In this document: one piece after another, positions 5,391-22,424 of the stretch | Layout: the number at the start of each line of letters is the position of its first letter | Position numbering within the stretch: position 1 is the stretch's first letter | Source: Burkholderia pyrrocinia | GTDB taxonomy: Bacteria > Pseudomonadota > Gammaproteobacteria > Burkholderiales > Burkholderiaceae | Assembly: GCF_018417535.1 (NCBI RefSeq) | Contig: NZ_CP070979.1 | Coordinates: 310,001-374,000 of the forward strand | Direction of reading: 5' to 3' | Length of the DNA: 64,000 nucleotides | Made by a program: the position numbers and the translations under genes | The notes under the pieces: generated by a model | The model's database searches: none | Told to the model about the DNA's origin: nothing | The model's input: only the letters and a program-made list of their open reading frames with translations

Positions 5391-5426
5391 AATCAAAATA
5401 AGTCAAAATAGTGATTGAGTTTGATT
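5391..5426. promoter_or_regulatory. DeoR-type operator candidate upstream of the amino-sugar operon
   Basis: AATCAAA (5391-5397) pairs with TTTGATT (5420-5426) as a perfect 7-bp inverted repeat. Inside it TCAAAATA occurs twice exactly 10 bp apart (5393-5400 and 5403-5410). The element ends 60 bp before the first gene of an operon that encodes its own DeoR-family repressor, and AT-rich direct repeats at one-helical-turn spacing are common in DeoR-family operators. Assignment to the repressor at 12067-12870 is inference. Confidence 0.45.
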
Positions 5427-5486
5427 TTTCTGGGGTGTATCTTTCCGTTCCATCACCCCCCCACAACCAGTACAGGAGGCAGCAAG

Positions 5487-6752
5487 ATGAAAAGAAAAAT
5501 GCATATGGCGGCCATCGCGACCATCGTGCTTTGCGCCGCTCTGCCGGTCGGCGCTCAAGCGGCGGTGCCGCTCACGGGAGAGACGGTTACCGTTTTGCTG
5601 CCGCCGTGGGCGACGTTACCGAAGGGCATGACAGACCGATTTACTGCGCAGACCGGCATCAGGCTGAGTCTGCAAACGCTGGGCTGGGACGAGATCAGAA
5701 CGAAAATCATCACGGCATCGATCGCAGGCAGCCCGCCTGCCGATGTCACGGAAATCGACTGGTCGTGGGTGGGGCAATTCGGTTCGTCGGGTTGGTATGC
5801 CCCCTTGAATGCTTCTGTCGATGCGGCAACGGCCAAGGACTTGCCTGCAACCTCGATCTTTACCTATGACAAGAAACTGATCGGCGTTCCTTATAACAAC
5901 GATTTTCGCCTTCTCATCTTCAATCGCGAGCAGTTGAGCGCGGCCGGTATCGCCCAGCCGCCGAAGACGCTGGCCGAATTGCTTGCCGACGCCAAGACCA
6001 TCAAGGAAAAAGGGATAGCGAAGTTTCCGATTGCTCTACCACTCTCGGCTACGGAAGGCACCGCGACGGCCTGGTACCTGCTGACCAAGGCCTTTGGCGG
6101 GGACCTCTTCGATAACGATCTGAAGCCGTCATTCACGTCGCCGGACTCTGCCGGCTACAAAGCCCTGGCATGGGAAATCGGCGCGCTCAAGGCAGGGCTT
6201 GTCGATCCCGCGTCGACCGGCCTGAAGGACGTCGAGGTTCAGGAGCTCTTCAAAAACGGGCAGGCGAGCTTTGACGTTGCGGGTTGGGCCGGAAATCTCT
6301 CCGTCTACACGGATCCGTCGAAGTCGAAGGTGGCGAAAGCAGCCGAAGGCGCGCTTATGCCGACGGTGTCCGGAAAGACGCGAACGTTCGGGTTGCCGGA
6401 GGCTGTCGGCATTCCTGCGGCATCTACGCACAAGAAAGCGGCTGAAGTCTTCATTCGCTGGTTCGTCGCGCCCGAGAACCAGATGGAAAGCTATACGGCT
6501 CTCGGAAACTTGCCGACCCGGACCAGTGTACTGAAATCGCTCCAGGAAAGCGGCAAGCTCGCCAGCGGAAAGGCACTTCTTGCCCAGGCCGCCGTCGTCG
6601 AACCGCTTTTCAAACAGGGAACGCCCGGATGGTATCCGCAGTTCAGCAGCGCGGTTTCCACCGCGATCAATCAAGCCGCGAAAGGGCAGCTCACTATCGA
6701 TGCCGCCATCAAGCAAATTGCTGCTCAAACGACTGAAGCCCAAAAGCAGTGA
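5487..6752 (+). CDS. ABC sugar transporter, periplasmic solute-binding protein (family 1)
   Basis: A 421-residue secreted binding protein. The ATG at 5487 follows a perfect AGGAGG (5474-5479). An in-frame start at 5415 is rejected because it would bury the signal peptide. The signal sequence KRKMHMAAIATIVLCAALPVGAQA is followed by mature AVPLTGETVTVLLPPWATLPKGMTDRFTAQTGI. That start and the later segments GVPYNNDFRLLIFNREQLSAAGI and WFVAPENQMESYTALGNLPTR are typical of the MalE/UgpB class of carbohydrate-binding proteins. First gene of an operon with two permeases, an ATPase and amino-sugar enzymes, so it sets the substrate of the system. Confidence 0.93.
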   Translation: MKRKMHMAAIATIVLCAALPVGAQAAVPLTGETVTVLLPPWATLPKGMTDRFTAQTGIRLSLQTLGWDEIRTKIITASIAGSPPADVTEIDWSWVGQFGSSGWYAPLNASVDAATAKDLPATSIFTYDKKLIGVPYNNDFRLLIFNREQLSAAGIAQPPKTLAELLADAKTIKEKGIAKFPIALPLSATEGTATAWYLLTKAFGGDLFDNDLKPSFTSPDSAGYKALAWEIGALKAGLVDPASTGLKDVEVQELFKNGQASFDVAGWAGNLSVYTDPSKSKVAKAAEGALMPTVSGKTRTFGLPEAVGIPAASTHKKAAEVFIRWFVAPENQMESYTALGNLPTRTSVLKSLQESGKLASGKALLAQAAVVEPLFKQGTPGWYPQFSSAVSTAINQAAKGQLTIDAAIKQIAAQTTEAQKQ

Positions 6753-6775
6753 GCTGATCGCTTAGGAAAAGAGCC

Positions 6776-7705
6776 ATGACCTCCGAAGTCGCAACCTCCG
6801 AGACCGTCCCATTTCAGGTTGACAAGCGTTCGACCTTCAACGGCGAATGCTGGTTGGGTTTAGCCTTCGCGGCGCCCATCGTCCTCATCATGGGATTACT
6901 GGTCTTCGGTCCCGTTTTAGTCACTCTGTGGGATAGCTTGCACAGGGTCGACCCCATGCGGCCTGGAACGCCGTTCATCGGCTTCGCGAATTACTGGGCA
7001 TTGATGAGCGATCCCCGCGTGCAGCATGCGTGGGTAAATACGATGGAATATGTCGTATTTGCGGTCGTTCTGGAAACGGTCGGAGGTCTGGCTGCAGCTT
7101 TATTGCTGAACAGGATTACCTGGGGCCGACGTTGGCTGCTGGCCGCCGTGGTTCTGCCGTGGGCGTTGCCGCCGGTTGTCAACGCGATCGTGTGGGCGTG
7201 GATCTACAACCCGAGCTATGGCCTCCTCAACGGTGCCCTGCAATCCGCCGGACTGATCGGTTCGTATCACGTCTGGTTCAACGACCGCACTACAGCATTG
7301 CTGCTTGTGGCACTGGTCCACGTCTGGCGCATGCTGCCGCTGACAGCGGTCATCTTGCTCGCGGCATTGCAGAGTATCCCCGCGGAACTTTATCAGGCGG
7401 CTCGTCTCGATGGCGCAGGTCCGATTCGCATGTTTTCCAAAGTGACCCTGCCGCTGATTTCGGGTGGACTCGCTATCGCGCTGAGTCAATCGACGGTTTT
7501 CGCATTCAATCTGTTCGACGAGGCATGGATCCTGAATGGATCAAGCCTGGACACTCGCCCGGTGCTTGTTCAGGTCTACATGTCCGCTTTTCAGGACCTT
7601 CGATTTTCATACGGTATGGCGCTGTCGGTTCTCGTCATGTTTGCCTCCCTGTTGATCTCGCTTGTCTATGTTTTACGCGTCTATCGCGAAACGAGGTACG
7701 ACTGA
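6776..7705 (+). CDS. ABC sugar transporter permease (MalF type)
   Basis: A 309-residue inner-membrane protein with six predicted helices. The first spans about residues 28-50 (GLAFAAPIVLIMGLLVFGPV). The ATPase-contact EAA loop is ELYQAARLDGAGPIRMFSKVTLPLI, close to the MalF-family consensus EAAxxDGA...F..I.LP. It is preceded by AGGAAAAG at a sensible distance. The stop codon overlaps the start of the second permease by one base (TGATG), which implies translational coupling and a heterodimeric membrane channel. Confidence 0.93.
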   Translation: MTSEVATSETVPFQVDKRSTFNGECWLGLAFAAPIVLIMGLLVFGPVLVTLWDSLHRVDPMRPGTPFIGFANYWALMSDPRVQHAWVNTMEYVVFAVVLETVGGLAAALLLNRITWGRRWLLAAVVLPWALPPVVNAIVWAWIYNPSYGLLNGALQSAGLIGSYHVWFNDRTTALLLVALVHVWRMLPLTAVILLAALQSIPAELYQAARLDGAGPIRMFSKVTLPLISGGLAIALSQSTVFAFNLFDEAWILNGSSLDTRPVLVQVYMSAFQDLRFSYGMALSVLVMFASLLISLVYVLRVYRETRYD

Positions 7706-8571
7706 TGCGCGGCTCATTCCTTTCCCGCGTCGGCTTGCTGATTTGCGCGACTGCTTTGTTGATATGGTCGCTGGGGCCGGTGTATTGGGCGCTTGTCACA
7801 AGCTTTACGGCGCCGACGGACCTGATATCGGCGTCGCCGCACTTCTTTCCGCCGCATGTGACGTTCGAGCACTATCGCGAACTTCTTGGAGCAACCAGTT
7901 CGTTTCAGGGAAGCGCGGTGCAATCCGTATGGCCGCAGTTCAGTCGGGCGCTTGTCAATAGTCTGGTTACGTCCCTCCTGGCAACGGTCGTAACCGTCGC
8001 GCTTGCTGCGATTGGGGCTTACGCGTTTGTTCGTCTCAAGTTCCCTGGCCGGAATGTCATTTTCGTCATGGTGGTCGCGTCTCTGGCTATTCCGGCCTAT
8101 ACGGTCATGATTCCGCTTTACAGGCTCATGGTGTCGTTGAAGCTTATCGATACCTACTTCGGCGTCACGATGATTTATGTGTCAGCGTTTCTGCCGCTTG
8201 CGCTATGGCTGATGCGAAGCGTGTACCAGTCGCTGCCGTTGTCGTTGGAGGAGGCAGCGTGGATGGACGGCGCAGGTCGTACCTACACGCTGTTCAAGAT
8301 CGTCCTTCCGCTGGCTGCGCCGGGATTGATAGCCAGTGCGATTCTCACGTTCCTGAGTGCCTGGGGGCAGTTCATGATTCCGCTGGTTTTTTCGCCGACC
8401 CTGGCGACCAAGCCCCTGACCGTCCTCATTCCGGAATTTGTCAGTCGCAACTATGTCGACTACGGGCTGATGAATGCGGCCGGCATGCTCGCCATCATTC
8501 CCCCGATCATCGTTGTGCTTTTTTTGAACCGCTTCCTTGTTCAGGGCCTCATGGCCGGATCAGGCAAGTAG
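7705..8571 (+). CDS. ABC sugar transporter permease (MalG type)
   Basis: A 288-residue inner-membrane protein starting at the ATG that overlaps the upstream stop. Its first helix is GLLICATALLIWSLGPVYWAL. A long periplasmic loop follows, as usual for MalG-type partners (HFFPPHVTFEHYRELL). The EAA motif is SLEEAAWMDGAGRTYTLFKIVLPLAAPG. It pairs with the preceding permease and the ATPase at 9619 to form a CUT1-type carbohydrate importer. Confidence 0.93.
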   Translation: MRGSFLSRVGLLICATALLIWSLGPVYWALVTSFTAPTDLISASPHFFPPHVTFEHYRELLGATSSFQGSAVQSVWPQFSRALVNSLVTSLLATVVTVALAAIGAYAFVRLKFPGRNVIFVMVVASLAIPAYTVMIPLYRLMVSLKLIDTYFGVTMIYVSAFLPLALWLMRSVYQSLPLSLEEAAWMDGAGRTYTLFKIVLPLAAPGLIASAILTFLSAWGQFMIPLVFSPTLATKPLTVLIPEFVSRNYVDYGLMNAAGMLAIIPPIIVVLFLNRFLVQGLMAGSGK

Positions 8572-8598
8572 CGTCTCTTTGCAAAAAGGAATTAACCA

Positions 8599-9549
8599 AT
8601 GAATGTGACCGAACGCGTTATCCAGGAGCAATTTCAGTTCTGGCCGGCGGCACTCGCCACGCCGTCTCTTGAACCGACCGCTTGCAAGTACGTGATCGTC
8701 GGCTGCGGCACTTCGTATCATCTCGCTCAAAGTATCGCCGCCTCGCTCAGTCTTCGCGGGTCGAGTGCGATCGCCGTGCCCGGAGGGGAGTGGGCGCGGC
8801 GCCGGCGCGCCTATGTTGCGAGCGATGCGAATGTTCACGTCATTGCGTTGTCGCGAAGTGGCGAGTCGACCGAGACGGTACAGGCGCTTGAAGTCAGCCG
8901 GGCCGCTGGTCTCGAGACGACCGCGATCACGTGCGAAGCCGACAGCAGCATTACCCGTCATGCAGACTCGGTCGTCTTTGCAAAGACCCATCCGGGCGAA
9001 GGCATCGTGATGACGTCATCGGCGAGCCTGATGTTGATAATGGGCTTGCGTCTGGCGGGCGTGGCGCTCGAAGGCAGCGTCGTGAACGATGCCGTGGCGA
9101 CGATGGGAAAACTTGACAAGGCTCTTCCCGGTGCCTTGGCGGGACGATCCCACTTCGTCTATCTGGGTGCGGGCCCGATGTATGGAATTGCAGGTGAAGG
9201 CGGCATCAAAATACAAGAGATGAGTCTGAGCTATGCCCATACCTATCACACGATGGAGTACCGGCACGGGCCTGTCAGCCTTGTGGACGAGAAAACGCTG
9301 GCCGTTCTGCTTTACAGCCCGGACACTCGTGACGAGGAAGCGAAGCTGGCAGCGGAGTTGATTGAGAAAGGGGCGATGGTCCTGGGTTTCGGCGGACCGG
9401 GAAGTGTAGAAATCGAACTCCCGGGGGCGGACGAAAGCCGGGCAATCATGGTGCTTCCCGCCCTGCAGATTCTGGGTGAGCGAGTCGCCGAACTGCGCGG
9501 CCTCGACACAACCGCTCCGCGTCATTTGAACAAGGTCGTCACGCTATAA
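8599..9549 (+). CDS. SIS-domain sugar-phosphate isomerase/deaminase (AgaS/GlmS-isomerase-like)
   Basis: 316 residues containing two SIS domains and no glutaminase domain. The first has the phospho-sugar loop VGCGTSYHLAQS (from about residue 34) and SRSGESTETVQAL. The second has YLGAGPMYGIAGEGGIKIQEMS, then HTMEYRHGP and the C-terminal LDTTAPRHLNKVVTL, which resembles the end of GlmS. Stand-alone proteins of this kind are ketose/aldose isomerases or deaminases acting on amino-sugar 6-phosphates (AgaS on galactosamine-6-P, FrlB on fructoselysine-6-P). A GatZ-type partner in the same operon favours AgaS-like conversion of galactosamine-6-P to tagatose-6-P and ammonia. Substrate is inferred. Confidence 0.85.
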   Translation: MNVTERVIQEQFQFWPAALATPSLEPTACKYVIVGCGTSYHLAQSIAASLSLRGSSAIAVPGGEWARRRRAYVASDANVHVIALSRSGESTETVQALEVSRAAGLETTAITCEADSSITRHADSVVFAKTHPGEGIVMTSSASLMLIMGLRLAGVALEGSVVNDAVATMGKLDKALPGALAGRSHFVYLGAGPMYGIAGEGGIKIQEMSLSYAHTYHTMEYRHGPVSLVDEKTLAVLLYSPDTRDEEAKLAAELIEKGAMVLGFGGPGSVEIELPGADESRAIMVLPALQILGERVAELRGLDTTAPRHLNKVVTL

Positions 9550-9618
9550 CGCCTGACAAGGGTCGTGTGCTGGTGCGCATCCAAGTCGCCATCGCAAAAT
9601 TTTCAAAGGAGGTGTCTC

Positions 9619-10713
9619 GTGGCCAATGTCGAGATCACCAATGTCAGAAAGAGTTATGGAAGCCAGTCGGTCATCGAAAGTGCCAACATTTCGATTCGGG
9701 ACGGCGAATTTGTGGCGCTTGTCGGCGCATCCGGCAGCGGGAAATCGACGCTGTTGCGCATGATTGCCGGCCTGGAAAGCATCACGGATGGAAAGATCTT
9801 CATTGGAGAACGGTTGATCAACAATCTTCCGGCCAAAGATCGGGACATCGCCATGGTTTTTCAGAACTACGCGCTCTATCCTCATCTGAGCGTAGCGGAA
9901 AACATGGGGTTCAGCCTTCAAATTCGCGGAACGGCGAAGGACGAAATTAAAAAGGCAATCGGTGAAGCCGCGGAAATACTGGGGCTTACCCCATATCTGC
10001 ATCGGCTTCCAAAACAATTGTCGGGCGGCCAACGTCAGCGCGTGGCGATGGGGCGTGCGATCGTCCGCAAACCCCAGGTGTTCCTGTTCGACGAGCCTCT
10101 ATCGAACCTGGACGCGCAGCTACGGGTGCAAATGCGCCGGGAAGTCAAATCCCTCCAGCAGCGGCTCGGGACAACCTCGATCTATGTCACGCACGATCAG
10201 ATTGAAGCGATGACGATGGCCGACCGGATCGTCCTGTTGAACCACGGTCATATTGAACAGGTGGGCGCCCCGCTCGACCTTTACGATCGCCCGGCGAATC
10301 TGTTTGTTGCCCGATTCATCGGCTCTCCCGCAATGAACCTGATGGAAGGATCGATCGTGCAACAGCAGGGGCAAACGTATGTCGACATTGATGATGGAAT
10401 CGTCATCGCGCTCGGAAAGGACGTGCCGGTTGAATCCGGTACGAAAGTCGTTTGCGGCATCAGACCCGAGCATTTCAATATCGCCGAAGGAAAGAGTGCG
10501 CTAGGCATCGACGTTTCCACCGTTGAGGCAACCGGGGCAGAGTCGCATCTGCACGGGACAATCGGCCGGCACCCGGCCACCCTGATTCTTGGGGGGCGGA
10601 ATCGTATCACGCATGGCGGCTCGATCCCGTTGACTGTCGCCGCCGAGGACATTCACGTTTTTGATCTGAAAACAGGTCGACGCTTCGATTTCGCACCGGG
10701 ATGCAGAACATGA
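9619..10713 (+). CDS. ABC sugar transporter ATP-binding protein (MalK/UgpC type)
   Basis: 364 residues. The start is the GTG at 9619, because AAGGAGGTG (9606-9614) sits directly upstream and the protein then begins MANVEITNVRKSYG, as MalK proteins do. Motifs in order: Walker A GASGSGKST, Q-loop MVFQNYALYPHLSV, signature LSGGQRQRVAMG, Walker B VFLFDEPLSNLD, switch HDQ. The last ~120 residues form the MalK-type regulatory TOBE/OB region (VVCGIRPEHFNIAEG). It energises the two permeases. It is separated from them by the SIS gene, so transport and catabolism are interleaved in one transcript. Its end overlaps the GatZ-like gene. Confidence 0.94.
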   Translation: MANVEITNVRKSYGSQSVIESANISIRDGEFVALVGASGSGKSTLLRMIAGLESITDGKIFIGERLINNLPAKDRDIAMVFQNYALYPHLSVAENMGFSLQIRGTAKDEIKKAIGEAAEILGLTPYLHRLPKQLSGGQRQRVAMGRAIVRKPQVFLFDEPLSNLDAQLRVQMRREVKSLQQRLGTTSIYVTHDQIEAMTMADRIVLLNHGHIEQVGAPLDLYDRPANLFVARFIGSPAMNLMEGSIVQQQGQTYVDIDDGIVIALGKDVPVESGTKVVCGIRPEHFNIAEGKSALGIDVSTVEATGAESHLHGTIGRHPATLILGGRNRITHGGSIPLTVAAEDIHVFDLKTGRRFDFAPGCRT

Positions 10714-11987
10714 ACAGTACTCTGGTGCAATCCATGACCGGGCGAGCCGGCAACGTCGGGCGCCTGGGTTTTTTCTCCGTCTGTACGGCTCATCCGGTAG
10801 TGATCGAGGCGGCGCTTCGGCACGCACTCGTTCACGACGTCGATGTGCTGATCGAGGCGACTTGCAATCAGGTAAACCAGGAGGGCGGTTATACGGGAAT
10901 GACCCCCGCCGACTTCCGGCGGTTTGTCGCGCAAATCGCGGTAAGGGTCGGCTTCAATACGGAACGCCTGATCCTGGGCGGCGACCATTTGGGACCGACC
11001 CCGTGGAAGAAACTTTCGTCTGATGATGCGATGGCACGCGCCGAGTCGATGATTGCCGATTATGTGCACGCGGGGTTCCGCAAGTTACACATCGACGCCA
11101 GCATGGGCTGTCACGGAGAGCCTGAGATGCTATCGGACGAGGTCGTTGCTCAGCGTGCAGTGCGGCTTGTTCGCTCCGCAGAAGCCGCCGCTTCTCGGGA
11201 GACCCCGCCGCTATACGTGATTGGTACGGAGGTTCCGGTACCAGGCGGGGCGCTTGAGGTAATCGATCATCTTGAAGTAACGCGACCGTCCGCTGCGCAG
11301 CGGACGATCGACGTCCATCGTGCAGCATTTGAACAAGCGGGGCTCTCCGCGGCTTTCGATCGGGTAATCGGCGTAGTCGTCCAGCCCGGCGTCGAATTTG
11401 GCCACCAGAACGTCATCGTGTATCGCCCGGAGCGAGCACGTGATCTTGGCGCGTTGCTTTCAACGGGACACGGGTACGTCTTCGAGGCGCATTCGACAGA
11501 TTATCAGCCGGCCGGCGCATTGGCCGAACTGGTTCGAGATGGATTCGCCATCCTGAAGGTCGGGCCGGGTCTTACCTTTGCCTACCGCGAAGCGCTCTAT
11601 GGGCTCGACGCGATTGCGCAAGTGCTCGCTCCGGTGCCGGAATCGGAAACTTTGGCGGCGTCGATGGAACGCGTCATGGTAGCCAGGCCGGAACACTGGG
11701 AGAAGTACTATCACGGTACCGAGGATGAAATTCGCGTACAGCGCCACTTCAGTTACAGCGACCGTATCCGTTACTATTGGGCATTGCCGGAAGCGCAGGC
11801 GGCGGTGAACGCGCTGCTGGAACGTCTTGACGGCATGACGGTACCCGAGACGCTGGTCAGCCAATACCTGAGTGCGCTATATCCGGCCGTCCGGTCAGGT
11901 GCTATCCAGGCGACGCCCACGGTTTTGCTGGAATATGCGGTCAGCCAGGTATTCGAAACCTACCACAAAGCGGTGACTGGTCCCTAA
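10701..11987 (+). CDS. GatZ/KbaZ-family protein; possible D-tagatose-6-phosphate 4-epimerase
   Basis: 428 residues matching the GatZ/KbaZ/AgaZ family: GFFSVCTAHPVVIEAALRHA, EATCNQVNQEGGYTGMTPADF, LGGDHLGPTPWK, FEAHSTDYQP and LKVGPGLTFAYREALYGLDAI. In enterics this family is called the non-catalytic subunit of tagatose-1,6-bisphosphate aldolase with KbaY/GatY. No such partner, and no tagatose-6-P kinase, lies in this operon. Work on Agrobacterium galactitol metabolism, as I recall it, showed a related stand-alone protein to be tagatose-6-P 4-epimerase, which would complete the route to fructose-6-P here. Two starts are possible (10701 and 10710); both overlap the ATPase stop at 10711-10713. 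Family call is firm, activity inferred. Confidence 0.85.
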   Translation: MQNMNSTLVQSMTGRAGNVGRLGFFSVCTAHPVVIEAALRHALVHDVDVLIEATCNQVNQEGGYTGMTPADFRRFVAQIAVRVGFNTERLILGGDHLGPTPWKKLSSDDAMARAESMIADYVHAGFRKLHIDASMGCHGEPEMLSDEVVAQRAVRLVRSAEAAASRETPPLYVIGTEVPVPGGALEVIDHLEVTRPSAAQRTIDVHRAAFEQAGLSAAFDRVIGVVVQPGVEFGHQNVIVYRPERARDLGALLSTGHGYVFEAHSTDYQPAGALAELVRDGFAILKVGPGLTFAYREALYGLDAIAQVLAPVPESETLAASMERVMVARPEHWEKYYHGTEDEIRVQRHFSYSDRIRYYWALPEAQAAVNALLERLDGMTVPETLVSQYLSALYPAVRSGAIQATPTVLLEYAVSQVFETYHKAVTGP

Positions 11988-12066
11988 CGCGCGCCGGCAT
12001 CGAATAGCGTGGTGAAGCCAGGGCTTGAAGCTTGCTATTGATGCTGTCTGTATATCGCGATGAGAT

Positions 12067-12870
12067 ATGAAAACGAACCGATTAGAGGCCATTAGGCACC
12101 ATTTGTATTCGAACGGCGAAACCTCGATTCAGGCTCTTGCCGAAGGGGTTGGCGCATCCTTGGCGACTATCCGACGGGATCTTCAGATTCTTGAGGAGCA
12201 AGGCGTCATCGAACGTAGCCATGGAGGCGCGCGTATCTCGAAGGGAGTGGATACCGAGGTCGCATTCGAAGTCCGCGAAAATCAGCATCTGCGCGAAAAA
12301 AGGGCAATCGCGGCGGCGGCATATGACCTCTTGACGCCGAACAGCGCAGTGTTCCTCGATGCCGGAACGACTGTCCTGCAACTGGCTCACCTGCTACGGG
12401 TCAATCCAATCCCGTTGACCGTCGTGACAAACGGTCTGGTCGTTGCACACCGCTTGATGAATGTGCCGAAGGTGCGCGTCTCGCTCATAGGTGGACAACT
12501 GCGTAACGAGAATGCGTCGATGGTTGGTCCGGCGGCCGAGTTGGCGCTTGATCGACTGTGGCTGGATCAGTTGTTCCTGGGAGCCGGTGCAATTGGCGAC
12601 GATCACAAAATCTACAGCATGGATTCCGCCGAAGCCAGCATCAACGAACATATGATCGAAAGAGCGGCGAGTACGATCGTTCTTGCCGATGCGAGCAAAT
12701 TCAGTCGGCGCTCCACATTCCTGGTCGCAGAGCTGAATAGTCGAATGCGCGTGATTTCGGATTCGTCCTTGCCCGCGGAGGAACAGTCGAGGCTGAGGAA
12801 GGCGGGCATCAATTTAATCACCGTCGAGAGCACGGGAACAGATTCCGGCCATCGGGCGAGTGGTTCATGA
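12067..12870 (+). CDS. DeoR/GlpR-family transcriptional regulator
   Basis: 267 residues. The N-terminal helix-turn-helix KTNRLEAIRHHLYSNGETSIQALAEGVGASLATIRRDL is followed by LEEQGVIERSHGGARI, the DeoR signature. The C-terminal sugar-phosphate sensor domain contains VFLDAGTTVLQLA, VTNGLVVAHRL, VSLIGGQLR and IVLADASKF. These proteins usually repress sugar operons and release DNA on binding a phosphorylated intermediate. It lies within the operon it probably controls, 79 bp after the GatZ-like gene, and overlaps the kinase by 4 bp. Candidate operators are at 5122-5158 and 5391-5426. Confidence 0.93.
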   Translation: MKTNRLEAIRHHLYSNGETSIQALAEGVGASLATIRRDLQILEEQGVIERSHGGARISKGVDTEVAFEVRENQHLREKRAIAAAAYDLLTPNSAVFLDAGTTVLQLAHLLRVNPIPLTVVTNGLVVAHRLMNVPKVRVSLIGGQLRNENASMVGPAAELALDRLWLDQLFLGAGAIGDDHKIYSMDSAEASINEHMIERAASTIVLADASKFSRRSTFLVAELNSRMRVISDSSLPAEEQSRLRKAGINLITVESTGTDSGHRASGS

Positions 12871-13811: not shown

Positions 13812-13879
13812 ATTCCGCGTCCAGTTTCCCTACTCTTACTGTGTCGATAAATCCGCATTGGATGCGGAACAGAACGGAT

Positions 13880-14300
13880 ATCGCCAGAGGCAGTCGTCGA
13901 AGCCGCACAACATGGCGAGTTCGGCAAACTGCTCGTCGGCCAATCGAAGCGAGCGCAGCGTATGCGGGATCGAGCAGACCGCTTCGGCAATGATCGCGGC
14001 ATCGCGGGCGTCGGTCTTGGCTTCACCTGCATGCAGATCGGCGATGCGGCGCATGGCCAGTCCCGGCAGATAGGCGACGAGCATGCCTTCGGCGCGGGCA
14101 CGGCCACTGGAAGCGCGCCGATGGGGAAGGCTGGTCGACGACGAACAGGAGTCGGCCATGAGTCTTGAGTGCGGCGATGAGCGCGCGCAGCTTGGCCTCG
14201 TCGTTGGGTAGCGCCTTGTTGTACAGACGCTTGCTGTTTCGATCGAGTGCGACGGCGTGATGCTGGCCTTTACCGACATCGACGCCGACGAAGACAGCGA
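13880..14300 (-). pseudogene. IS110-family transposase remnant (5' half, frameshifted)
   Basis: Read leftward from about 14298, one frame gives VFVGVDVGKGQHHAVALDRN, then LPNDEAKLRALIAALKTHGRLLFVVDQPS: the DEDD-type N-terminus of IS110-family transposases. A frameshift near 14110-14130 moves the reading into another frame, which gives AEGMLVAYLPGLAMRRIADL, then HAGEAKTDARDAAIIAEA and LADEQFAELAMLCGFDD. It then ends abruptly near 13880. The C-terminal Ser-containing domain and the element ends are missing, so it cannot move. Confidence 0.8.
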
Positions 14301-14565
14301 AGCCGAGCAGCAACTGTGGAACGAGTGTGCCCACCCGATCGCCAACGGCATCATCCACTACAACACGGCCTTGCTCTCGCGTGTCCACGAGCAGAAGCAC
14401 GCCACGGGCGACGAGGTCGCGATGGCGTTTATCGCCACCATGTCGCCGGTTGCCTGGCGGCACGTCAACCTGTTCGGCGCGATGGATATCGGCGCCGCGA
14501 CCATGCCCGTCGACATCGACGCGCTCGCTTCGTATTACGCTGACCAGGAGTACTGGGCCGCTTGC
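14300..14565 (+). pseudogene. Tn3-family transposase C-terminal remnant
   Basis: The plus strand from about 14300 encodes EAEQQLWNECAHPIANGIIH, YNTALLSRV and SPVAWRHVNLFGAMDI, which matches the extreme C-terminus of Tn3-family TnpA (xxANxIIYYNxxLLS...SPVAWxHINLxG). The upstream part is absent and abuts exactly the 5' end of the oppositely oriented IS110 remnant, so the IS110 element or a deletion probably broke the Tn3 gene at 14300. No terminal inverted repeat was recognised. Confidence 0.72.
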
Positions 14566-14711
14566 CCCAGGCAGCAGCCGAAGAGAGCGACGAGGAAATC
14601 CGAGATCCCGCTCACAAGACGTCCGGTTCGCCACTCATTGGACTCGGGAAGCCTTGCCAGGCAAGAGCTTGGGTGAGATTTTCAGTTCGCGGAGGATGGG
14701 AAAAAATAGCC

Positions 14712-15105
14712 AACGTCGCTTACGCCGGCCTATCCGAAGCCCGGTAAAGTTGCTCGACATATCATCACAAAATATTACGTACGCGGTGGTATATGGCTTC
14801 CTACAATCCTTGCAACTGACGGGCGGGCATGCGGCACTGCGGTTTCCGCTCTGTCGTTAAAGGGCTCGCAGCGACGAAGGTGGTCCCCGATAACGCGTAG
14901 TTGCCCGCTTCAGCGTGCCACTGCCGGCATTGAACGCATGTGGTCGGTATTGACGTCGCACGGGCCTTCGAGGGGCAGCATTCGAACGGTACGATGTACT
15001 AATAGGAGTACGAAGTAACGTCGCTGCAAATTACGCGGAGTCTCGATGTGCTCACGAACGCGATCGAAGTCGCGGTCGCCCGGGCCGCGAAAACACGTAA
15101 AAGGA
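14712..15105. repeat. Left copy of a ~400-bp direct repeat flanking the glycosidase/peptidase island
   Basis: This segment is a diverged copy of 22425-22846 in the same orientation. Shared landmarks include GAAGCCCGGTAAAG, GCTCGACATATCAT, ACAAAATATTAC, GCACTGCGGTTTCCGCTCTG and GGAGTCTCGATGTGCTCACG (CTG in the other copy). The left copy lost the ATG of the FliT-like reading frame (GTA instead) and about 27 bp near 15085. It ends just before the ribosome site of the GH16 gene. Nothing else coding is seen between 14566 and 15110. Confidence 0.85.
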
Positions 15106-15110
15106 TACCT

Positions 15111-16415
15111 ATGAGAACCCATGCACTGTTACTTAGCGTGTTTATGTTGTCTGCCTGTGGTATGGATTCCCCCGAGGATGTGAAACCTCTCACGACAAAT
15201 TATACTAATGCGGTACATGCCGACAAGGCAGTAGATACTGACTGGCAGCTTATTTTTTCTGAAGACTTCAAAGATAACAAATATGACGGGGGGTTCAATC
15301 CCAACAAATGGTCGTATTGCAAACGCAACACCAAAAAGCCCGGCTCGGACTGGGACACAACTATCACCAACACTCCTGCCTACGCCTCCCAAACTGGTGG
15401 GCGCCTCGTACTCCGGTTGGACGATGCAGTGATCGCCGACGATCCCATTGCTTACCACTCCGGATGCGTTACAACTGCCGATAAACTCGAATTTACTTAC
15501 GGCAAAGTGGAAGTAAGAGCGAAATTCAATCAGGGCGATGGTTCCTGGCCGGCCATCTGGATGCTGCCGGAAGATGGCGATTGGCCAGATGACGGTGAGA
15601 TCGACATCATGGAACACTTAAAATTCAACCCCGTGGTATACGGGAATGCCATCATGTCCCCGACAGAAAAAGATAAAGAAAATGGAGATGAAAGCTACAC
15701 CAGCAGCGGAAACGGACTCTATGATGTCGACGATTTTAATACCTATGGATTGGAATGGAGTCCCACCGAACTAAAATTCTATGTTAACGGTTCGTTGTAC
15801 CATACCTATTCTAAGCCAGCCAATGCTACTCGGCGCGAATGGCCATTCGACAAGCCTTTCTATATCATCCTCAACCAGTCGGGCGGGAGTGAGGGTGATG
15901 GATATGCGGAGAAGATCAATAATTCCCACTTGCCTTTCCAGATGGAAGTGGATTCTGTAAAGGTATATCAGCGACCCGAATTCGAGTCTGGCGCCACTTA
16001 CAAAATCCTCTCTGCGCTGGACAATACCAGCGTACTCGGCGTGAATGGCGCCGGCAACGACACCTCAGTCGTCCTCCGGCCCGACAACACACCATCCGTC
16101 CTCGACCAGCAATGGAGGCTGACGAGCACCGGCGACGGATATTACCTGCTCCAGCCGATGCACGCCTTATCCAAATCATTCAATGTCACCGGAATTGGTA
16201 ACGAGTCCAAGGTCCAGATTCAAGATGACAATGGTGGTAAGGCACAGCGCTGGCAAATTAAAAATATTGGCAACGGCTACTACGTGCTCGCACCCGCCAG
16301 CGATCCATCCAAACGACTGGAGGTTGCCGGAGGAAGTACGGTGGACGGTACAAGCATTCAGATTAACGACCACACGGCGGGCAACGCTCAAAAATTCAGG
16401 ATTGTTAAACAATAA
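15111..16415 (+). CDS. GH16 glycoside hydrolase lipoprotein with C-terminal ricin-type lectin domain
   Basis: 434 residues. The ATG at 15111 is preceded by AAGGAT and gives a lipoprotein signal MRTHALLLSVFMLSAC, Cys16 being the lipidation site. Residues ~45-290 are a GH16 beta-jelly-roll: WQLIFSEDF, GKVEVRAKFNQGDGSWPAIWMLP and the catalytic E163-I-D165-I-M-E168 (ExDxxE, the bulged form found in laminarinase/agarase-type enzymes). Residues ~300-434 form a beta-trefoil with repeated QQWRL and QRWQI (QxW) motifs, probably sugar binding. The gene is much AT-richer than its neighbours, which points to recent transfer. Substrate could be a beta-glucan, a galactan or a host O-glycan. Confidence 0.9.
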   Translation: MRTHALLLSVFMLSACGMDSPEDVKPLTTNYTNAVHADKAVDTDWQLIFSEDFKDNKYDGGFNPNKWSYCKRNTKKPGSDWDTTITNTPAYASQTGGRLVLRLDDAVIADDPIAYHSGCVTTADKLEFTYGKVEVRAKFNQGDGSWPAIWMLPEDGDWPDDGEIDIMEHLKFNPVVYGNAIMSPTEKDKENGDESYTSSGNGLYDVDDFNTYGLEWSPTELKFYVNGSLYHTYSKPANATRREWPFDKPFYIILNQSGGSEGDGYAEKINNSHLPFQMEVDSVKVYQRPEFESGATYKILSALDNTSVLGVNGAGNDTSVVLRPDNTPSVLDQQWRLTSTGDGYYLLQPMHALSKSFNVTGIGNESKVQIQDDNGGKAQRWQIKNIGNGYYVLAPASDPSKRLEVAGGSTVDGTSIQINDHTAGNAQKFRIVKQ

Positions 16416-16770
16416 ATTACGCTGCACCCGAAATTCTGAATTTTCTTAAAAAGATATGGCACTCGTGAAGGATCAGACTTTCGGATCCTTTCGACGGGGC
16501 TGGCTACAATATTGCTTATTTTTCTCTGGCCCGGGATGGCTTAATAGCGCCATTCCATGTATCCCGGCAGTGAACGAGTTTGGCTACTCGGTCGGTACAA
16601 TTGCCTGAATGACATATTTGAATTCCTTAAATACTTCCAAACTCATCCCGTTTCGTATTGCTCAACGGAGGAACGCCAGCACGAGTTAAACGGTGTAGAG
16701 AGCTTGCGGGAGATTCTGGGCGAACCGGAAGGCAAGGCGCGGTATCGACGAACTCACTGGAGAATTTGAC
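16416..16770. other. 355-bp non-coding spacer after the GH16 gene
   Basis: No gene is supported here. It contains a terminator-like hairpin at 16468-16490 and the GGAGA ribosome site (16759-16763) of the M66 gene. A 70-codon open frame at 16557-16769 has no recognisable features. Confidence 0.5.
16468..16490 (+). terminator. Possible terminator hairpin after the GH16 gene
   Basis: AAGGATC (16468-16474) and GATCCTT (16484-16490) form a perfect 7-bp stem with a 9-base loop, 53 bp after the GH16 stop. The tail is only weakly T-rich, so efficiency is doubtful. Confidence 0.35.
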
Positions 16771-19473
16771 GTGAAATCTTTCACGAAGGCGACGGCCGTA
16801 CGGCGGTGCACGGGGATCTTTTTGCTCGGCATTTCAGCGGCTGTCCTGACTGCGTGTGGTGGCGGAGACGACGCAGCGGTAGGCAGCCCCGCAGCCAAGG
16901 GGAGCATCGGCGGCGCAGCGACGGGGGACAGCGGCGTCGGGGCCGGCGAGCCAAAAGCCGATCCGACTGCGAGCCTGCCGCTATTTCCGAACTTCGCATC
17001 AGCGCTTGGTTTCTTTGATGTGACCCGGGCCAATCAGCCCCGGCCGATGCGGAATGATCTGGCGGGCGCACTGCCTGGCATGGTGCAGTTCGTCCAGAGC
17101 CACTCGATCAATCCCCAAGGCAATACCGAGAATAACCTGCCGACGCTGGTCACTTCTCGCAACGCGTTGCTGCTGTTCACGCCGCAGCGCAGCCCCGCGG
17201 GCAGGGTCCGTGTCGAGGTGCAAGTGGACGGCGTAACGCAGCACACCGTCGTGATGGCTGCCCCGAATCAACTGCCCGCGACCGATGTTACCGGCACCGA
17301 TGGCCGTCCTGACGTTGCGTATACGAAGCGTGCCTGGAGCACCGTTTGCCCTGGACTGTCGTGAAGCCCGGCATGACGCTTGTGTTTCGCGACGAATCCG
17401 GGCAGTCCGGTACGTTGGTCGCAAGCCAGATCGAGATGGCCGCTCCGGCAAAGATGTATATCTGGGGTATCCGTCTCGGCATGCTTACTTCGCCACCGGT
17501 CGACAACGATGGCCAACCCATGCTCACCAAGCCTGCGCTTGCGGCAACAGACTACTTCCAGATACTCCCGGTATCCCAGTTGACCGTGGCAAGTTATGAG
17601 GATGTGAAGCTGGACAAGGTCATGCTCGCGGATGGCACCATTCTGACCGGCGCCAGCAAGTCCAACGGTGACTATCATGGCGGCGACATGCGCGAACAGG
17701 TGGGCAAGTCGCAGTTCAGCATTGGCATCAATCTAGCCAATTACGGCGTCAGCAGTTCGATCAACGGCGATCAGGGTATTGGCGAAACCACGCCGCAGAT
17801 TGTCTATCACCACTTCGCAGGCAACTACGCCAACGGTGTTCAAGTGCATGGCGGTTCCGGCGGCGGCGCCATGGCCACGCTCAGCACGAGCTACGGAAAT
17901 GAATTCAGCCATGAGTTGGGTCACCACTACGGGATGGGCCACTTTCCCGGTCAGGTCGGCAATGACGGCTTCTGGGCAAACCACCATGCCGACAGCGGAT
18001 GGGGCTACATCGACCACCGCAAGCGGATGCGAAGCAACCTGATGTGGTCGGCCAAAGAACGGGATCCCGGTTCCGGCACCGTGAATCCGCAATCCTTCGC
18101 CCACCAGTACATCTATCAGAAAGACCCCATGTCCGGCGCCTGGCTGGAGCCGGATTCGATGCTCTCCAGGTACACGTACTACACCGGTTACACCGCAACG
18201 CGCATTCAAAAGTTCATGGACAAGGCCTGGTTCGACCAGGGCTCGGCCACGGGCTACAGCCGGTGGGATGCCGCGCGCCAGAAAGTGGTACCCGCGACCC
18301 CAGGGGACGACAGGGCGCCGCCAACCCGCTTCGGCGTACCGGTCTTCACGCTCTTGGGTGCTTACGACCGAAGCAACAACACTGCTGTGATGTACCCGCC
18401 CGCCAGAGCCAACTACGGCATGGTGTTCGATAAGCTGCCCGCACCCGATGCCGCGGCAAGTGCAGCATGCTGGATTGACGTGCGCGTTGCCAACGGGAGC
18501 AAATCCATCAATCTGCATGCCGACCGGATCAGGAAGGACAACGCCAACAAGTTCCACGTCAACATCGCCGAGGCAGATCAGCCACAGAGCGCCTCGCTGT
18601 CGTGCCGCAAGGGCGATCGGATCACACGGCTGGCCGAAGTCGTGTTTCCCCAAAATCTGCCGGCCATGGAGGCCGCGGTGGTGGTGGGCGAGTCGGCCGG
18701 CTATGACGCACTGGCTGCGCGGGAGATGCCGCAAATCGAAGCCGCGTTGAAAGCCATCGGCAACGACAAGCCCCCGTTCCCCGACAGCAATCTTCGACTC
18801 TTGTTGGACAGCTGGCGTGACCGGCTCCAACAGTTGAGTGGCCCCGCTGCAGAAACCTGGAAACGGATTGAGCGTACACGTATCAGCGCCGACGCACTGA
18901 ATGATTGGATGACAAACAACGCCGCAGGCCTGGACGCCAAGGCACCGGAAACAGTCAAAGCCTGGCGCGCTCGGCTCGTCAACTCGGGTCTGGTTTCCGG
19001 TACGGGAGGATATGCCGATGCCTTCAGCCAGGTTGTGATGGGCCGGTCAGAGGGTTGCATGGCGGTGTCGAGCGGCGATCCACTCACCGCGAAAGCAGTG
19101 GTGACCCCTTGTGTGCGCAAGCCGGAGCAACTTTGGGTGCAGGACGCGCGCGGGGCGCTGCGCAGCGCTGCCGGATTACTGCATACGGATCGTTGACGAC
19201 TGGAATGCCGGGCTCGCCAAGTGCAACCGAGATTCCGCAGCGCAGATCTTCACGGTCAAGGACGGCAGGATCGTTCCGATCACCCGGCCCTGGATTGGCT
19301 TGAAGAAAGGAGTAGGACCAGACGATGGCAGCCGGCTTGGCCAGCTTGGGGCCTACAACACGAGCTGGGGCGTCCCGCAGTGGCATGGCCTGAAGCAGGA
19401 TCCCAATATGCTTCTGGCGCTTCTAAGCGATGAAAACGCTCGGCGCCTGTTGCAACTCGATCCCGTGAAGTAG
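16771..19473 (+). pseudogene. M66 (StcE/dictomallein-type) zinc metallopeptidase lipoprotein, two frameshifts
   Basis: The GTG start at 16771 follows GGAGA and gives a lipoprotein signal ending GISAAVLTAC. The reading frame breaks at ~17347, where one missing base separates AWSTV from LPWTVVKPGMTLVFRDESGQ. It breaks again at 19176-19177, where one extra T sits inside GGATTAC, and the original frame then resumes as YCIRIVDDWNAGLAKC to the stop at 19473. The repaired protein is about 900 residues. It carries the extended zinc site HELGHHYGMGH (17910-17942), typical of M66 enzymes such as StcE, which cleaves mucin-type glycoproteins. The rest of the protein is well preserved, so the breaks are recent, or sequencing errors, or the gene is a fresh pseudogene. 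Confidence 0.85.
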
Positions 19474-19601
19474 TTCTTGCCGGAGCGAGATAACGATCAT
19501 GGACAGACAAAATTTTCTTGCGTTTTCAGTTTCCCGTGAAGTAGTCCTTACCAAAGTGAGATAACGATCATGGACAGACGAAATTTTCTTGCGTTCTCAG
19601 T
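19462..19601 (+). repeat. 71-bp tandem duplication over the 5' end of the GH35 gene
   Basis: The unit 19462-19532 is repeated at 19533-19601 with a 71-bp period. Each copy begins CCCGTGAAGTAG (the 3' end of the M66 gene), carries GAGATAACGATCATGGACAG and ends in TTTTCTTGCG followed by TTTTCAGT or TTCTCAGT. Both copies therefore have an ATG; the first (19499) opens only a 16-codon frame, MDRQNFLAFSVSREV, and the second (19570) is the real GH35 start. Confidence 0.9.
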
Positions 19602-21663
19602 GGTGACCCCGCTGGTCGTCGCCTGCGGCGGTGGAGATGACAATCCGCTGGGCACCGGAATATCCGCCGGACAAAATCGAGCGAACGCAATGACGGCTGC
19701 CGGCACGAATCCCTCGTTCGAGTCCGGCCGCAAGCGCGTGCTGTCCTGGAACAGTGCGGGCAATTGGATGATGGATGGCGCCAGCTTCCAGTTTTTTGGC
19801 GCGGAGATCCACCCTTCGCGGGTTCCGTCTCAGTATTGGGATCACCGCATCAAAATGATCAAGGCGCTCGGATGCAATACGATTTCCCTCTACGTGATGT
19901 GGAATTTCCACGAGCTGTCGGACGGGACGTTCGATTTCTCGTCGCCCGATAAGGATATCGGCCACTTCATCGACCTTTGCGCAGCCAACAATATGTGGGT
20001 GTTGTTGCGCCCCGGACCGTACGTTAACGCGGAGTGGGATTTCGGCGGACTGCCGCCTCGCATGTTGGCCGATCCGCAGTTCCGCGATTCGGGTGACCTG
20101 CAGGGTGACCTGCAGATTCGCGGCAATTTCCCGGCCTACATGGCGGCCGTGCAGAAATGGAACGCGGCCCTTTACGCCAACGTCATCGAAGGACGGACCC
20201 TGGCCTCGGGTGGTCCGATTATGCTGGTCGCGATGGAAGACGAATATTCAGACTTCTGGGATCCGGTGGACCCCAACCACCCGACTGCCCTGGCCTCGCA
20301 GTGGACCAGTCTTGGCTACGCGGAAAAATTTTGCGTGTGCGAAGGCACGGCGAACGGCTTCAAGGATCAAAACATCCGGCTACCGGCCAATACCGCATAT
20401 GGGATCAGTTTGCAAGGGAAATACGAGTCGAGCCACGTCGAGGCCACGAAGAATTACGGCGTGGCAAGTTTCGGCGCGGAAATCTATCCAGGCTGGCTAT
20501 GTAATTGGGGCGACCCTGCCCAGGATATCCGCGACGACAATTTTGCGAGTAGTGTGGTCGGGGCCCTGACAAAAGCCGGTCGTTCAATTGTCATTTACGT
20601 CGGGCACGGCGGCACCAGCTTCGGTTTCACGGCGGGTTGCGATGGCGAAGCCGCGAAGGAATGTCAGCCGTTGATGACGTCTTATGACTATGGTGCGCCG
20701 GTAGCGGAAAACGGCCTGCCGAACAAGAATTTTCAGCCGATCCAGGCCGCTTATGCTGCAAATACGTCATTCGGCGTTTCAGCCGGCCCGGTCCCCGCAC
20801 CACCTATCGACAGCATTGCCGACGGTGAGGTTGCATCGATTTCGAGCAACCAGTTCGCTTTCAGCGATTTTCTGTCCAATGTCCCTCCGACGATCGAGAA
20901 TAGTCAACCACAGACGATCGAATGGATCGCGCTGACGCTCAACAAGGGACAACCCGCCAACGCAGGCATTTATCCCGCCGGCGTCGCGGTTTACCAGACG
21001 ACACTCCCGTCGGGAGGCAACTTTTCCGTGGAGTTCAGCCGGCCGCCTGATTTCGCGCTGGCCTTCATCAACGGCACCCGCGTGACGAGCAACGTGCTGA
21101 CGACCGTCAAGAAAGAGGCAGAGAACAAGGAAAGCAAGCTACCATCCTCCTCCGTGACTACGTTCGATATCGACAACGCGCAGCCAGGCGCCATGTTGCA
21201 GATCGTCTGCATGCCATTCGGCCGAGCCAATGTCAATAGCAGCGCAATGAAGAAGGACGGGCGCGGCCTTTCCGGAAACGTAACGTTGAGCGGCGGTGCC
21301 TTGACGGACTGGAAGATGGCGCTTTCCCCGTTGTCCGCGGCACAACTTGCCGCGCTGCCATTCGACGCGAGCGCGCCCACGAGCGCGCGTCCCTTCTTTG
21401 CGAAAGCGACCTTCGCTATCGAAACGCAGAAGGACATGTATATCGACATGTCGTCATGGGGGACCGGCTATGTTTTCGTGAACGGACGCAACCTCGGTCG
21501 CTATTGGCCATCGGTAGGCCCCCAGACTCGCCTGTATTGCCCTGGCGTGTGGTTGAACAGTGGCAGCAATACGATTGTCGTTTTCGAATTCACGCAGGCA
21601 AGCGCCGGTTCGCTGAGTTTCTTCGGTTCGAGCAATCTGCCTTACAACATCAAGTCGGATTAA
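19570..21663 (+). CDS. GH35 beta-galactosidase-like Tat lipoprotein
   Basis: 697 residues. The N-terminus MDRRNFLAFSVVTPLVVAC combines a twin-arginine motif (RRNFL) with a lipobox Cys, so a folded lipoprotein is expected. The catalytic barrel has FGAEIHPSRVP, TISLYVMWNFHE and LLRPGPYVNAEWDFGGLP, standard for GH35. The family acid/base signature GGPxxxxQxENEY reads GGPIMLVAMEDEY, so acid/base E225 is kept while Gln and Asn are replaced. The likely nucleophile is E304 in FGAEIYPGW. The C-terminal jelly-roll ends with YVFVNGRNLGRYWPSVGPQ, the usual GH35 closure. It should release terminal beta-galactose outside the cytoplasm, next to the M66 and GH16 genes. Confidence 0.92.
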   Translation: MDRRNFLAFSVVTPLVVACGGGDDNPLGTGISAGQNRANAMTAAGTNPSFESGRKRVLSWNSAGNWMMDGASFQFFGAEIHPSRVPSQYWDHRIKMIKALGCNTISLYVMWNFHELSDGTFDFSSPDKDIGHFIDLCAANNMWVLLRPGPYVNAEWDFGGLPPRMLADPQFRDSGDLQGDLQIRGNFPAYMAAVQKWNAALYANVIEGRTLASGGPIMLVAMEDEYSDFWDPVDPNHPTALASQWTSLGYAEKFCVCEGTANGFKDQNIRLPANTAYGISLQGKYESSHVEATKNYGVASFGAEIYPGWLCNWGDPAQDIRDDNFASSVVGALTKAGRSIVIYVGHGGTSFGFTAGCDGEAAKECQPLMTSYDYGAPVAENGLPNKNFQPIQAAYAANTSFGVSAGPVPAPPIDSIADGEVASISSNQFAFSDFLSNVPPTIENSQPQTIEWIALTLNKGQPANAGIYPAGVAVYQTTLPSGGNFSVEFSRPPDFALAFINGTRVTSNVLTTVKKEAENKESKLPSSSVTTFDIDNAQPGAMLQIVCMPFGRANVNSSAMKKDGRGLSGNVTLSGGALTDWKMALSPLSAAQLAALPFDASAPTSARPFFAKATFAIETQKDMYIDMSSWGTGYVFVNGRNLGRYWPSVGPQTRLYCPGVWLNSGSNTIVVFEFTQASAGSLSFFGSSNLPYNIKSD

Positions 21664-21703
21664 TGGGAGAGGTGATGGATTCACGAATCTCGGCCATACC
21701 TCC

Positions 21704-21963
21704 TTCACGGGCGGGAAATCGACGACCGTGTCGTTGATGCGGTTGAACGTGTTGGTGAAGATCAGCAGCGCGATCGCGAGCGAGATTTCAGCGAGTTGCG
21801 CGTCCGTGTAGCCGGCTTCGCGGATCGACGCGCATTCGTTGTCGGTGATCGTGCCGCTGGTCCGTTCCGTTGCAGGTTCAACATGAAGCGGATCAGCGCG
21901 TCGCGCTTCGCGTCGCCGCTGTTCGGCTGGCCCGAGCGGATCGCGCGCAGCGCGCCGACCGAC
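21704..21963 (-). pseudogene. Decayed duplicate of the 3' end of the CMD-family gene at 30497-31039
   Basis: This stretch is nearly identical to 30501-30755 in the same orientation, so it would encode the C-terminal half of the carboxymuconolactone-decarboxylase-like protein. The stop codon is lost (TCC on the plus strand instead of TTA), and a 5-bp duplication (GGTCCGTTCCGTTGC versus GGTCCGTTGC) shifts the frame. Similarity ends at ~21963. It is a non-functional fragment copied from a gene about 8.8 kb away. Confidence 0.85.
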
Positions 21964-22339: not shown

Positions 22340-22424
22340 CAGCGCGATATCCGGCGAGTAGTCGGCCGGGCACCCTGACGAGGCGTCGTTCGGGCGAAAA
22401 CGCTTGCGGAAAACCGCTTGTGCG

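What the first reader, a model, noticed from the sequence alone, without database searches (positions are those of the whole stretch)
5487..21663. Possible mucin/O-glycan utilisation locus: secreted M66, GH16 and GH35 lipoproteins beside an amino-sugar import operon
Seen in sequence: three lipoprotein genes for an StcE-type M66 peptidase, a GH16 glycosidase and a GH35 beta-galactosidase lie next to an ABC importer operon with hexosamine kinase, AgaS-like SIS enzyme and GatZ-like protein. Family knowledge: M66 enzymes cleave mucin-type glycoproteins; GH35 removes beta-galactose; some GH16 enzymes attack host O-glycans; AgaS/AgaZ serve galactosamine, the core sugar of O-glycans. Inference: surface enzymes release GalNAc-containing glycans whose sugars feed the operon. 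I know of no Burkholderia locus described this way.
Basis: partly seen in the sequence, partly recalled or inferred. Interest (0 to 1): 0.78.

Follow-up and report, generated by a model that had tools for sequence, protein, structure and literature searches.

The report
Two unrelated acquired sugar gene blocks
Two sets of sugar-related genes that sit side by side in a Burkholderia bacterium seem to have arrived separately and probably do not form one mucin-eating pathway: one looks like a self-contained galactosamine-eating operon, the other a small, partly decayed set of surface enzymes.

Summary
The genes are real, but the locus is probably not one pathway. Block A (porin plus importer operon, 3525-13811) is 84-89% identical in DNA to Paraburkholderia phenazinium, and the match stops at the end of the kinase gene. 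The operon recurs in 14 other fetched loci; GH16, M66 and GH35 are in 0 of those 14. Block B (GH16, M66, GH35) has its best hits in Burkholderia sp. BKH01 on contigs of one same length. An IS110 remnant and a partial repeat copy separate the blocks. Both sit in a ~26-kb insertion flanked by 987-bp repeats; two relatives show the empty site. The M66 gene is broken across three frames; the GH35 has an unusual Asn-to-Asp change beside its catalytic acid. The operon reads best as a route for free galactosamine: kinase, SIS deaminase, then a GatZ-type 4-epimerase giving fructose-6-phosphate. GatZ is over cut-off in 14 of 15 operon genomes, its supposed aldolase partner GatY in 0 of 15, the deacetylase NagA in 12 of 15. 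No mucin link is shown; the target of Block B is open.

The parts
3582..4730 (-). porin of Block A
   Evidence: Porin_4 172 bits; 88% aa to the porin beside the P. phenazinium operon; only 31% in L012 and no match in the other 12 loci
5487..6752 (+). ABC importer sugar-binding protein
   Evidence: SBP_bac_1 137 bits; best solved relative by profile 5ci5, 108.9 bits
6776..7705 (+). ABC importer permease 1
   Evidence: BPD_transp_1
7705..8571 (+). ABC importer permease 2, probable ATG at 7705 inside the longer mechanical ORF 7030-8571
   Evidence: BPD_transp_1; homologues in 14 of 14 loci, 27% in L023
8599..9549 (+). SIS-domain protein, proposed amino-sugar-phosphate deaminase/isomerase
   Evidence: SIS 86.8 bits; GlmD 124, AgaS 72, NagB-II 53 bits, all below cut-off
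9565..10713 (+). ABC importer ATPase, MalK/UgpC-like
   Evidence: ABC_tran, OB_MalK, TOBE_2
10701..11987 (+). GatZ/KbaZ-like protein, proposed tagatose-6-P 4-epimerase
   Evidence: TIGR02810 605.2 bits, cut-off 568.8; the seven residues named for E. coli GatZ in PMC11907403 are kept in the alignment to 2fiq
12067..12870 (+). DeoR-type regulator
   Evidence: DeoRC 150.7 bits; AgaR model 177 bits, cut-off 260
12867..13811 (+). BadF-type kinase, proposed hexosamine kinase
   Evidence: BcrAD_BadFG 80 bits; best PDB match a MurNAc/GlcNAc kinase, 6e-23
13836..14354 (-). IS110 transposase remnant between the blocks
   Evidence: DEDD_Tnp_IS110 partial match; similar to ISBma3-family elements in Burkholderia plasmids
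14709..15087 (.). partial copy of the site repeat, left edge of Block B
   Evidence: 86-87% to the other two copies
15048..16415 (+). GH16 lipoprotein with ricin-type lectin domain; lipoprotein start probably ATG 15111
   Evidence: GH16 and RicinB_lectin_2; EIDIME at 184, lipobox LSAC
16771..17364 (+). M66 piece 1 (lipobox, N-terminal part)
   Evidence: 94% to P0121 residues 1-194
17346..19196 (+). M66 piece 2 (M66 domain with HELGHHYGMGH, TagA domain)
   Evidence: 97% to P0121 residues 193-801
19111..19473 (+). M66 piece 3 (C-terminal end)
   Evidence: 99% to P0121 residues 798-902
19461..19601 (.). 70-bp tandem duplication around the GH35 start
   Evidence: D3, 90%
19570..21663 (+). GH35 lipoprotein, Asp in place of the Asn before the acid/base Glu
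   Evidence: Glyco_hydro_35 223 bits; D224 in 3 of 16 aligned rows
21703..21963 (.). 261-bp copy of window 30500-30755, near the right end of the insertion
   Evidence: 94%
22326..23312 (.). right copy of the 987-bp site repeat (left copy 4.7 kb before the window, C3:305264-306246)
   Evidence: 92% between copies; single copy in G049 and G019

Best explanation
Two separately acquired modules lie next to each other in one ~26-kb insertion on a 1.32-Mb replicon of a Burkholderia (flanks like B. pyrrocinia). Module A is a Paraburkholderia-type porin plus ABC operon that takes up free galactosamine. The BadF kinase makes galactosamine-6-P, the SIS enzyme deaminates and isomerises it to tagatose-6-P, and the GatZ-like protein acts alone as a 4-epimerase to give fructose-6-P, so no deacetylase, tagatose kinase or aldolase is needed. 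Module B is a repeat-edged cassette of three exported lipoproteins (GH16-lectin, M66, GH35) in which M66 is broken here. Shown: gene content, absence of Module B genes from the other operon loci examined, insertion, repeats, frame breaks. Inferred: galactosamine as substrate, each enzyme step, separate arrival, and the lack of functional coupling.
For: Operon without island genes in 14 of 14 other loci; M66 genome-wide in 1 of those 14 genomes, weak. Island proteins: three best hits in BKH01, 95/97/97%, contig length 674,782 in all three rows. Block A DNA identity to P. phenazinium stops 13 bases before the kinase end. Nested repeats; empty site in G049 and G019. GC 58% operon, 50/62/58% GH16/M66/GH35, 66% right flank. 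GatZ over cut-off in 14 of 15, GatY in 0 of 15, NagA in 12 of 15 operon genomes. GatZ and KbaZ convert Fru6P to Tag6P in E. coli (PMC11907403, passages); all seven named residues kept. Absence of AgaA beside AgaS is used in print as the mark of GalN rather than GalNAc use (PMC5583593, passages).
Against: The SIS protein is nearest GlmD/GlmS types, so glucosamine-6-P is a real alternative. Kinase and binding protein are too far from characterised relatives to fix a sugar. GatZ lies inside only 9 of 14 loci, and one operon genome (Meiothermus, with an unlike importer) has none. How common GatZ is in near relatives without the operon was not tested; the own genome has a second GatZ gene. 13 of 15 genomes do have matches to the GatY model below its cut-off, so some class II aldolase is there. 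The own genome has NagA, so GalNAc use is not excluded. Whether BKH01 has the operon is unknown.
Confidence: 0.62

Rival explanations
1. One reading: one mucin/O-glycan locus in which the surface enzymes free GalNAc-containing glycans whose sugars feed the operon.
Against: 0 of 14 operon loci carry any island gene; M66 frame-broken; no deacetylase in the operon; GH16 nearer laminarinases by sequence (120.7 against 99.7 bits); repeat copy and IS110 remnant between the blocks.
Confidence: 0.08
2. The operon serves glucosamine: the SIS enzyme is a GlmD-type glucosamine-6-P deaminase giving fructose-6-P directly, and GatZ belongs to another route.
For: NCBIfam GlmD 124 bits against AgaS 72; best PDB match 1j5x, named glucosamine-6-phosphate deaminase; kinase best match a MurNAc/GlcNAc kinase.
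Against: GatZ inside 9 of 14 loci and over cut-off in 14 of 15 genomes, but in 1 of 14 control genomes; a glucosamine route would not need it. The SIS scores are below the cut-off of every NCBIfam family listed.
Confidence: 0.22
3. Block B is a cassette against fungal or other environmental cell-wall glycans and glycoproteins: GH16 as a beta-1,3-glucanase, GH35 and M66 on decorated proteins or side chains.
Against: GH16 structural ranking puts O-glycanases level or slightly ahead; the best-named GH35 relative outside Burkholderia is from Xenorhabdus stockiae, 69%, an insect-associated genus (recalled); no activity known; GH35 motif changed. Not exclusive with the best explanation.
Confidence: 0.4
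4. The M66 frame breaks are sequencing or assembly errors and the gene is intact in the living strain.
For: The pieces are 94, 97 and 99% identical to a 902-aa relative; the metalloprotease motif is intact.
Against: Two breaks in 2.7 kb of M66 and none seen in about 11.6 kb of operon, GH16 and GH35 coding DNA, whose frames match relatives over full or nearly full length; a 70-bp tandem duplication beside it also suggests decay.
Confidence: 0.3

Closest known systems
aga/gam (GalNAc/galactosamine) catabolic clusters, e.g. E. coli and Shewanella
   Same: SIS deaminase, GatZ/AgaZ-type protein, route through tagatose-6-P, separate kinase in Shewanella (PMC12118421, passages); DeoR-type regulator AgaR (recalled; model score)
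   Different: ABC importer instead of PTS or AgaP permease; SIS nearer GlmD than AgaS; no deacetylase in the cluster; GatY over cut-off in 0 of 15 operon genomes, so GatZ is read as an epimerase
GatZ-type tagatose-6-P 4-epimerases linked to Agrobacterium and Sinorhizobium (cited inside PMC11907403, passages)
   Same: GatZ-type protein interconverting tagatose-6-P and fructose-6-P
   Different: Here tagatose-6-P would come from galactosamine-6-P by a SIS deaminase
B. thetaiotaomicron PUL BT4240-50, mucin O-glycoprotein and GalNAc locus (PMC11992087, abstract and outline)
   Different: M60-like not M66, SusD-type binding, inducible and tested; here the two halves are not found together elsewhere
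StcE (M66)
   Same: M66 and TagA-like regions align, HExxHxxGxxH here, 221 bits
   Different: Lipoprotein signal and C-terminal ricin-like region in relatives; gene broken in three frames here
GH16 subfamily 3 laminarinases and gut O-glycanases (PMC7419316, passages and section 14)
   Same: Fold; five of nine gut mucin-associated GH16 enzymes are predicted lipoproteins
   Different: C-terminal ricin lectin domain; specificity undetermined; subfamily not formally assigned here

Membership tests
StcE-type M66 mucinase | M66 domain with HExxHxxGxxH zinc motif | tested here: met
   143.6 bits; motif at residue 189 of piece 2
StcE-type M66 mucinase | single open gene with export signal | tested here: not met
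   three frames
StcE-type M66 mucinase | cleaves mucin-type glycoproteins | not testable with these tools
   no assay
GH16 endo-O-glycanase | GH16 domain with ExDxxE catalytic motif | tested here: met
GH16 endo-O-glycanase | closer to O-glycanases than to laminarinases | tested here: inconclusive
   sequence favours laminarinase; structure ties, O-glycanases first by under 1 Z; model mean pLDDT 61.7
GH35 beta-galactosidase | GH35 domain with two catalytic Glu | tested here: met
   223 bits; E225 and E304 invariant in 16 rows; their roles are recalled
GH35 beta-galactosidase | Asn before the acid/base Glu (clan GH-A, recalled) | tested here: not met
   Asp in window, P0001 and P0002; Asn in the other 13 of 16
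AgaS | reaches AgaS family cut-off (TIGR02815) | tested here: not met
   71.9 against 529.2 bits
GlmD glucosamine-6-P deaminase | reaches GlmD cut-off (NF041128) | tested here: not met
   123.9 against 580 bits
GatZ/KbaZ | reaches TIGR02810 cut-off | tested here: met
   605.2 against 568.8 bits
GatZ/KbaZ as aldolase subunit | GatY/KbaY/AgaY partner over cut-off in the genome | tested here: not met
   0 of 15 operon genomes over cut-off, 13 of 15 with lower matches; 1 of 14 control genomes over cut-off, not named in the answer
GatZ/KbaZ as C4 epimerase | residues C20 E44 D87 H88 E171 H257 K279 (E. coli GatZ numbering) | tested here: met
   all seven identical in the alignment to 2fiq, whose residue numbers fit; activity itself not tested
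GalNAc (aga) pathway | GalNAc-6-P deacetylase in the cluster | tested here: not met
   none among the eight operon genes; NagA elsewhere on C1
mucin glycan utilisation locus | enzymes and importer travel together | tested here: not met
   0 of 14 operon loci; weak M66 match in 1 of 14 genomes; BKH01 could not be examined

The most novel reading that the evidence does not exclude
A galactosamine-only catabolic operon, found in Burkholderiales, Pseudomonas and Rhizobiales, in which GatZ works alone as a tagatose-6-phosphate 4-epimerase. Free galactosamine would thus reach fructose-6-phosphate in three steps without deacetylase, tagatose kinase or aldolase. Its natural source may be deacetylated alpha-1,4-galactosamine polymers of fungi or bacterial biofilms (galactosaminogalactan; Pel, recalled) rather than mucin; a GH4 glycosidase lies beside the operon in 5 of 14 loci.
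Probability: 0.45. Interest if true: 0.5.

Novelty: new variant of a known kind. Interest (0 to 1): 0.3.

Why it matters
It separates a tempting but unsupported mucin story from what the genomes show, and replaces it with a testable three-step galactosamine route. If right, it would explain why bacteria such as these carry GatZ without its supposed aldolase partner, and give a marker operon for bacteria that feed on galactosamine polymers. It also documents stacking of foreign cassettes at one repeat-flanked site on a Burkholderia replicon.
Full report
Place and host. The window is C3:310001-374000 of an 8.54-Mb, three-contig Burkholderia genome; C3 is 1,319,567 bases. Flanking DNA is 92.6-93.9% identical over 7.4 and 10.3 kb (and 88% over a further 0.9 kb) to an 848-kb replicon of B. 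pyrrocinia, so this is probably the third replicon of a cepacia-complex strain (inference). No call names the species.

Observation. Pfam and ORF calls confirm the eight operon genes at 5487-13811 and the GH16, M66 and GH35 domains at 15048-21663. Lipoboxes are present in all three exported proteins. The residue after the lipid Cys is Gly in each, which fits outer-membrane sorting (rule recalled). The M66 gene is not intact: 16771-17364, 17346-19196 and 19111-19473 lie in three frames. Compared apart, they align to residues 1-194, 193-801 and 798-902 of the 902-aa M66 protein of Burkholderia sp. BKH01 at 94, 97 and 99% identity. A 70-bp tandem duplication sits at the start of GH35.

Are operon and enzymes one locus? 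The SIS gene was found in 1 of 65 genus genomes at E<=1e-30 and in 1 of 299 family genomes at the stricter E<=1e-60, the own genome each time. A pattern-based scan of the genome collection gave 14 other loci: two Paraburkholderia (90 and 85% aa), six Pseudomonas, three Labrys, and one each of Mesorhizobium, Lichenifustis and Meiothermus. In them the regulator, kinase, SIS enzyme and two permeases are found in 14 of 14 (Meiothermus permeases only 27-29% identical), the binding protein in 13, the ATPase at 54% or more in 9, and GatZ in 9. GH16, any M66 piece and GH35 are found in 0 of 14 (E<=1e-5, 19-21 kb held per locus). Genome-wide, 13 of the 14 genomes have no M66 match and one has a weak match just over the cut-off (20.8 against 20.6 bits). 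DNA identity between the window and P. phenazinium covers 3525-4821, 5057-5150 and 5299-13798 (84-89%; porin plus operon) and stops 13 bases before the end of the kinase gene. GH35 matches elsewhere in the genus are 33-37% identical (6 further genomes of 65), and no other family genome reached E<=1e-130 (1 of 398). M66 was found in 3 of 65 genus genomes, the own included.

Insertion structure. A 987-bp stretch at 22326-23312 has a 92% copy 4.7 kb before the window and an 86-87% partial copy at 14709-15087. In two other Burkholderia genomes (G049, G019) the flanks on both sides of our insertion meet at a single copy of this stretch, so the ~26 kb between the full copies is an insertion with an empty site in relatives. 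In a third genome (G032) the single copy is followed by a deacetylase-like gene that also follows our left copy (function judged by eye), which suggests layered events. The GH16 protein of BKH01 begins with nearly the same stretch that in our right copy starts the 115-aa ORF 22732-23079, so the left junction of Block B seems shared with BKH01. An IS110 remnant lies between the blocks. GC is 58% for the operon, 50, 62 and 58% for GH16, M66 and GH35, and 66% for the right flank.

How the operon probably works. NCBIfam scores put the SIS protein nearest GlmD (124 bits), then GlmS (103), with AgaS at 72; all are far below cut-off. The kinase is of the BadF type, best PDB match a MurNAc/GlcNAc kinase. 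GatZ passes its family cut-off. GatZ and KbaZ of E. coli, annotated as aldolase chaperones, convert fructose-6-P to tagatose-6-P (PMC11907403, passages), and the seven residues that paper names are all kept here in the alignment to 2fiq. Of the 15 genomes with the operon, the own included, 14 have GatZ over cut-off (E. coli is the only one of 14 control genomes to match). None has GatY/KbaY over cut-off; 13 have lower matches, as 11 of 14 control genomes have any match and one is over the cut-off, not named in the answer. This fits GatZ as a lone epimerase. NagA is over cut-off in 12 of 15; three Pseudomonas genomes are not, so the route there seems not to depend on this deacetylase, which suggests free galactosamine. 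Proposed steps: GalN to GalN-6-P, to tagatose-6-P plus ammonia, to fructose-6-P. Against: the SIS scores leave glucosamine open, no binding-protein ligand could be assigned, and how common GatZ is in near relatives without the operon was not tested. A GH4 glycosidase lies beside the operon in 5 of 14 loci.

Verdict. The genes are real and the amino-sugar reading of the operon is good, but the joint mucin pathway is not supported. The more interesting residue is the operon, a galactosamine route of a variant for which nine paper searches showed me no description (listings, and the passages named above). The galactosamine-polymer idea rests on search-listing abstracts for galactosaminogalactan (PMC3213105, PMC7229062) and on recall for Pel.

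Noticed in passing
window -4736..23312 (C3:305264-333312): ~26-kb insertion flanked by 987-bp 92% direct repeats, with a third partial copy inside; single copy (empty site) in G049 and G019.
   Followed up: yes
window 22732-23079: 115-aa ORF without Pfam match whose 5' part and upstream DNA form part of the repeat; a copy of its start precedes GH16.
   Followed up: partly
window 21703-21963 and 30500-30755: 261-bp duplicate (94%) matching part of a carboxymuconolactone decarboxylase gene in B. pyrrocinia.
   Followed up: partly
L040:15579-16373: Polysaccharide-deacetylase-like ORF right of the left repeat copy, also in G032 at the same place (function judged by eye from the translation).
   Followed up: partly
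L016, L019, L021, L022, L023: GH4 glycosidase next to the SIS operon in 5 of 14 loci; the two other Labrys copies are 95% identical to the one in L019.
   Followed up: partly
G000:C1:3786786-3788060: A second GatZ-family gene on contig C1, 638.6 bits.
   Followed up: no
window 19570-21663: Asn-to-Asp change before the GH35 acid/base Glu, in the window protein and its two nearest relatives, 3 of 16 aligned rows.
   Followed up: partly
G017:C3:1243224-1244147, G035:C2:538734-539657: M66 genes in two other Burkholderia genomes score far higher with the family model (406 and 397 bits) than the window's (149).
   Followed up: no
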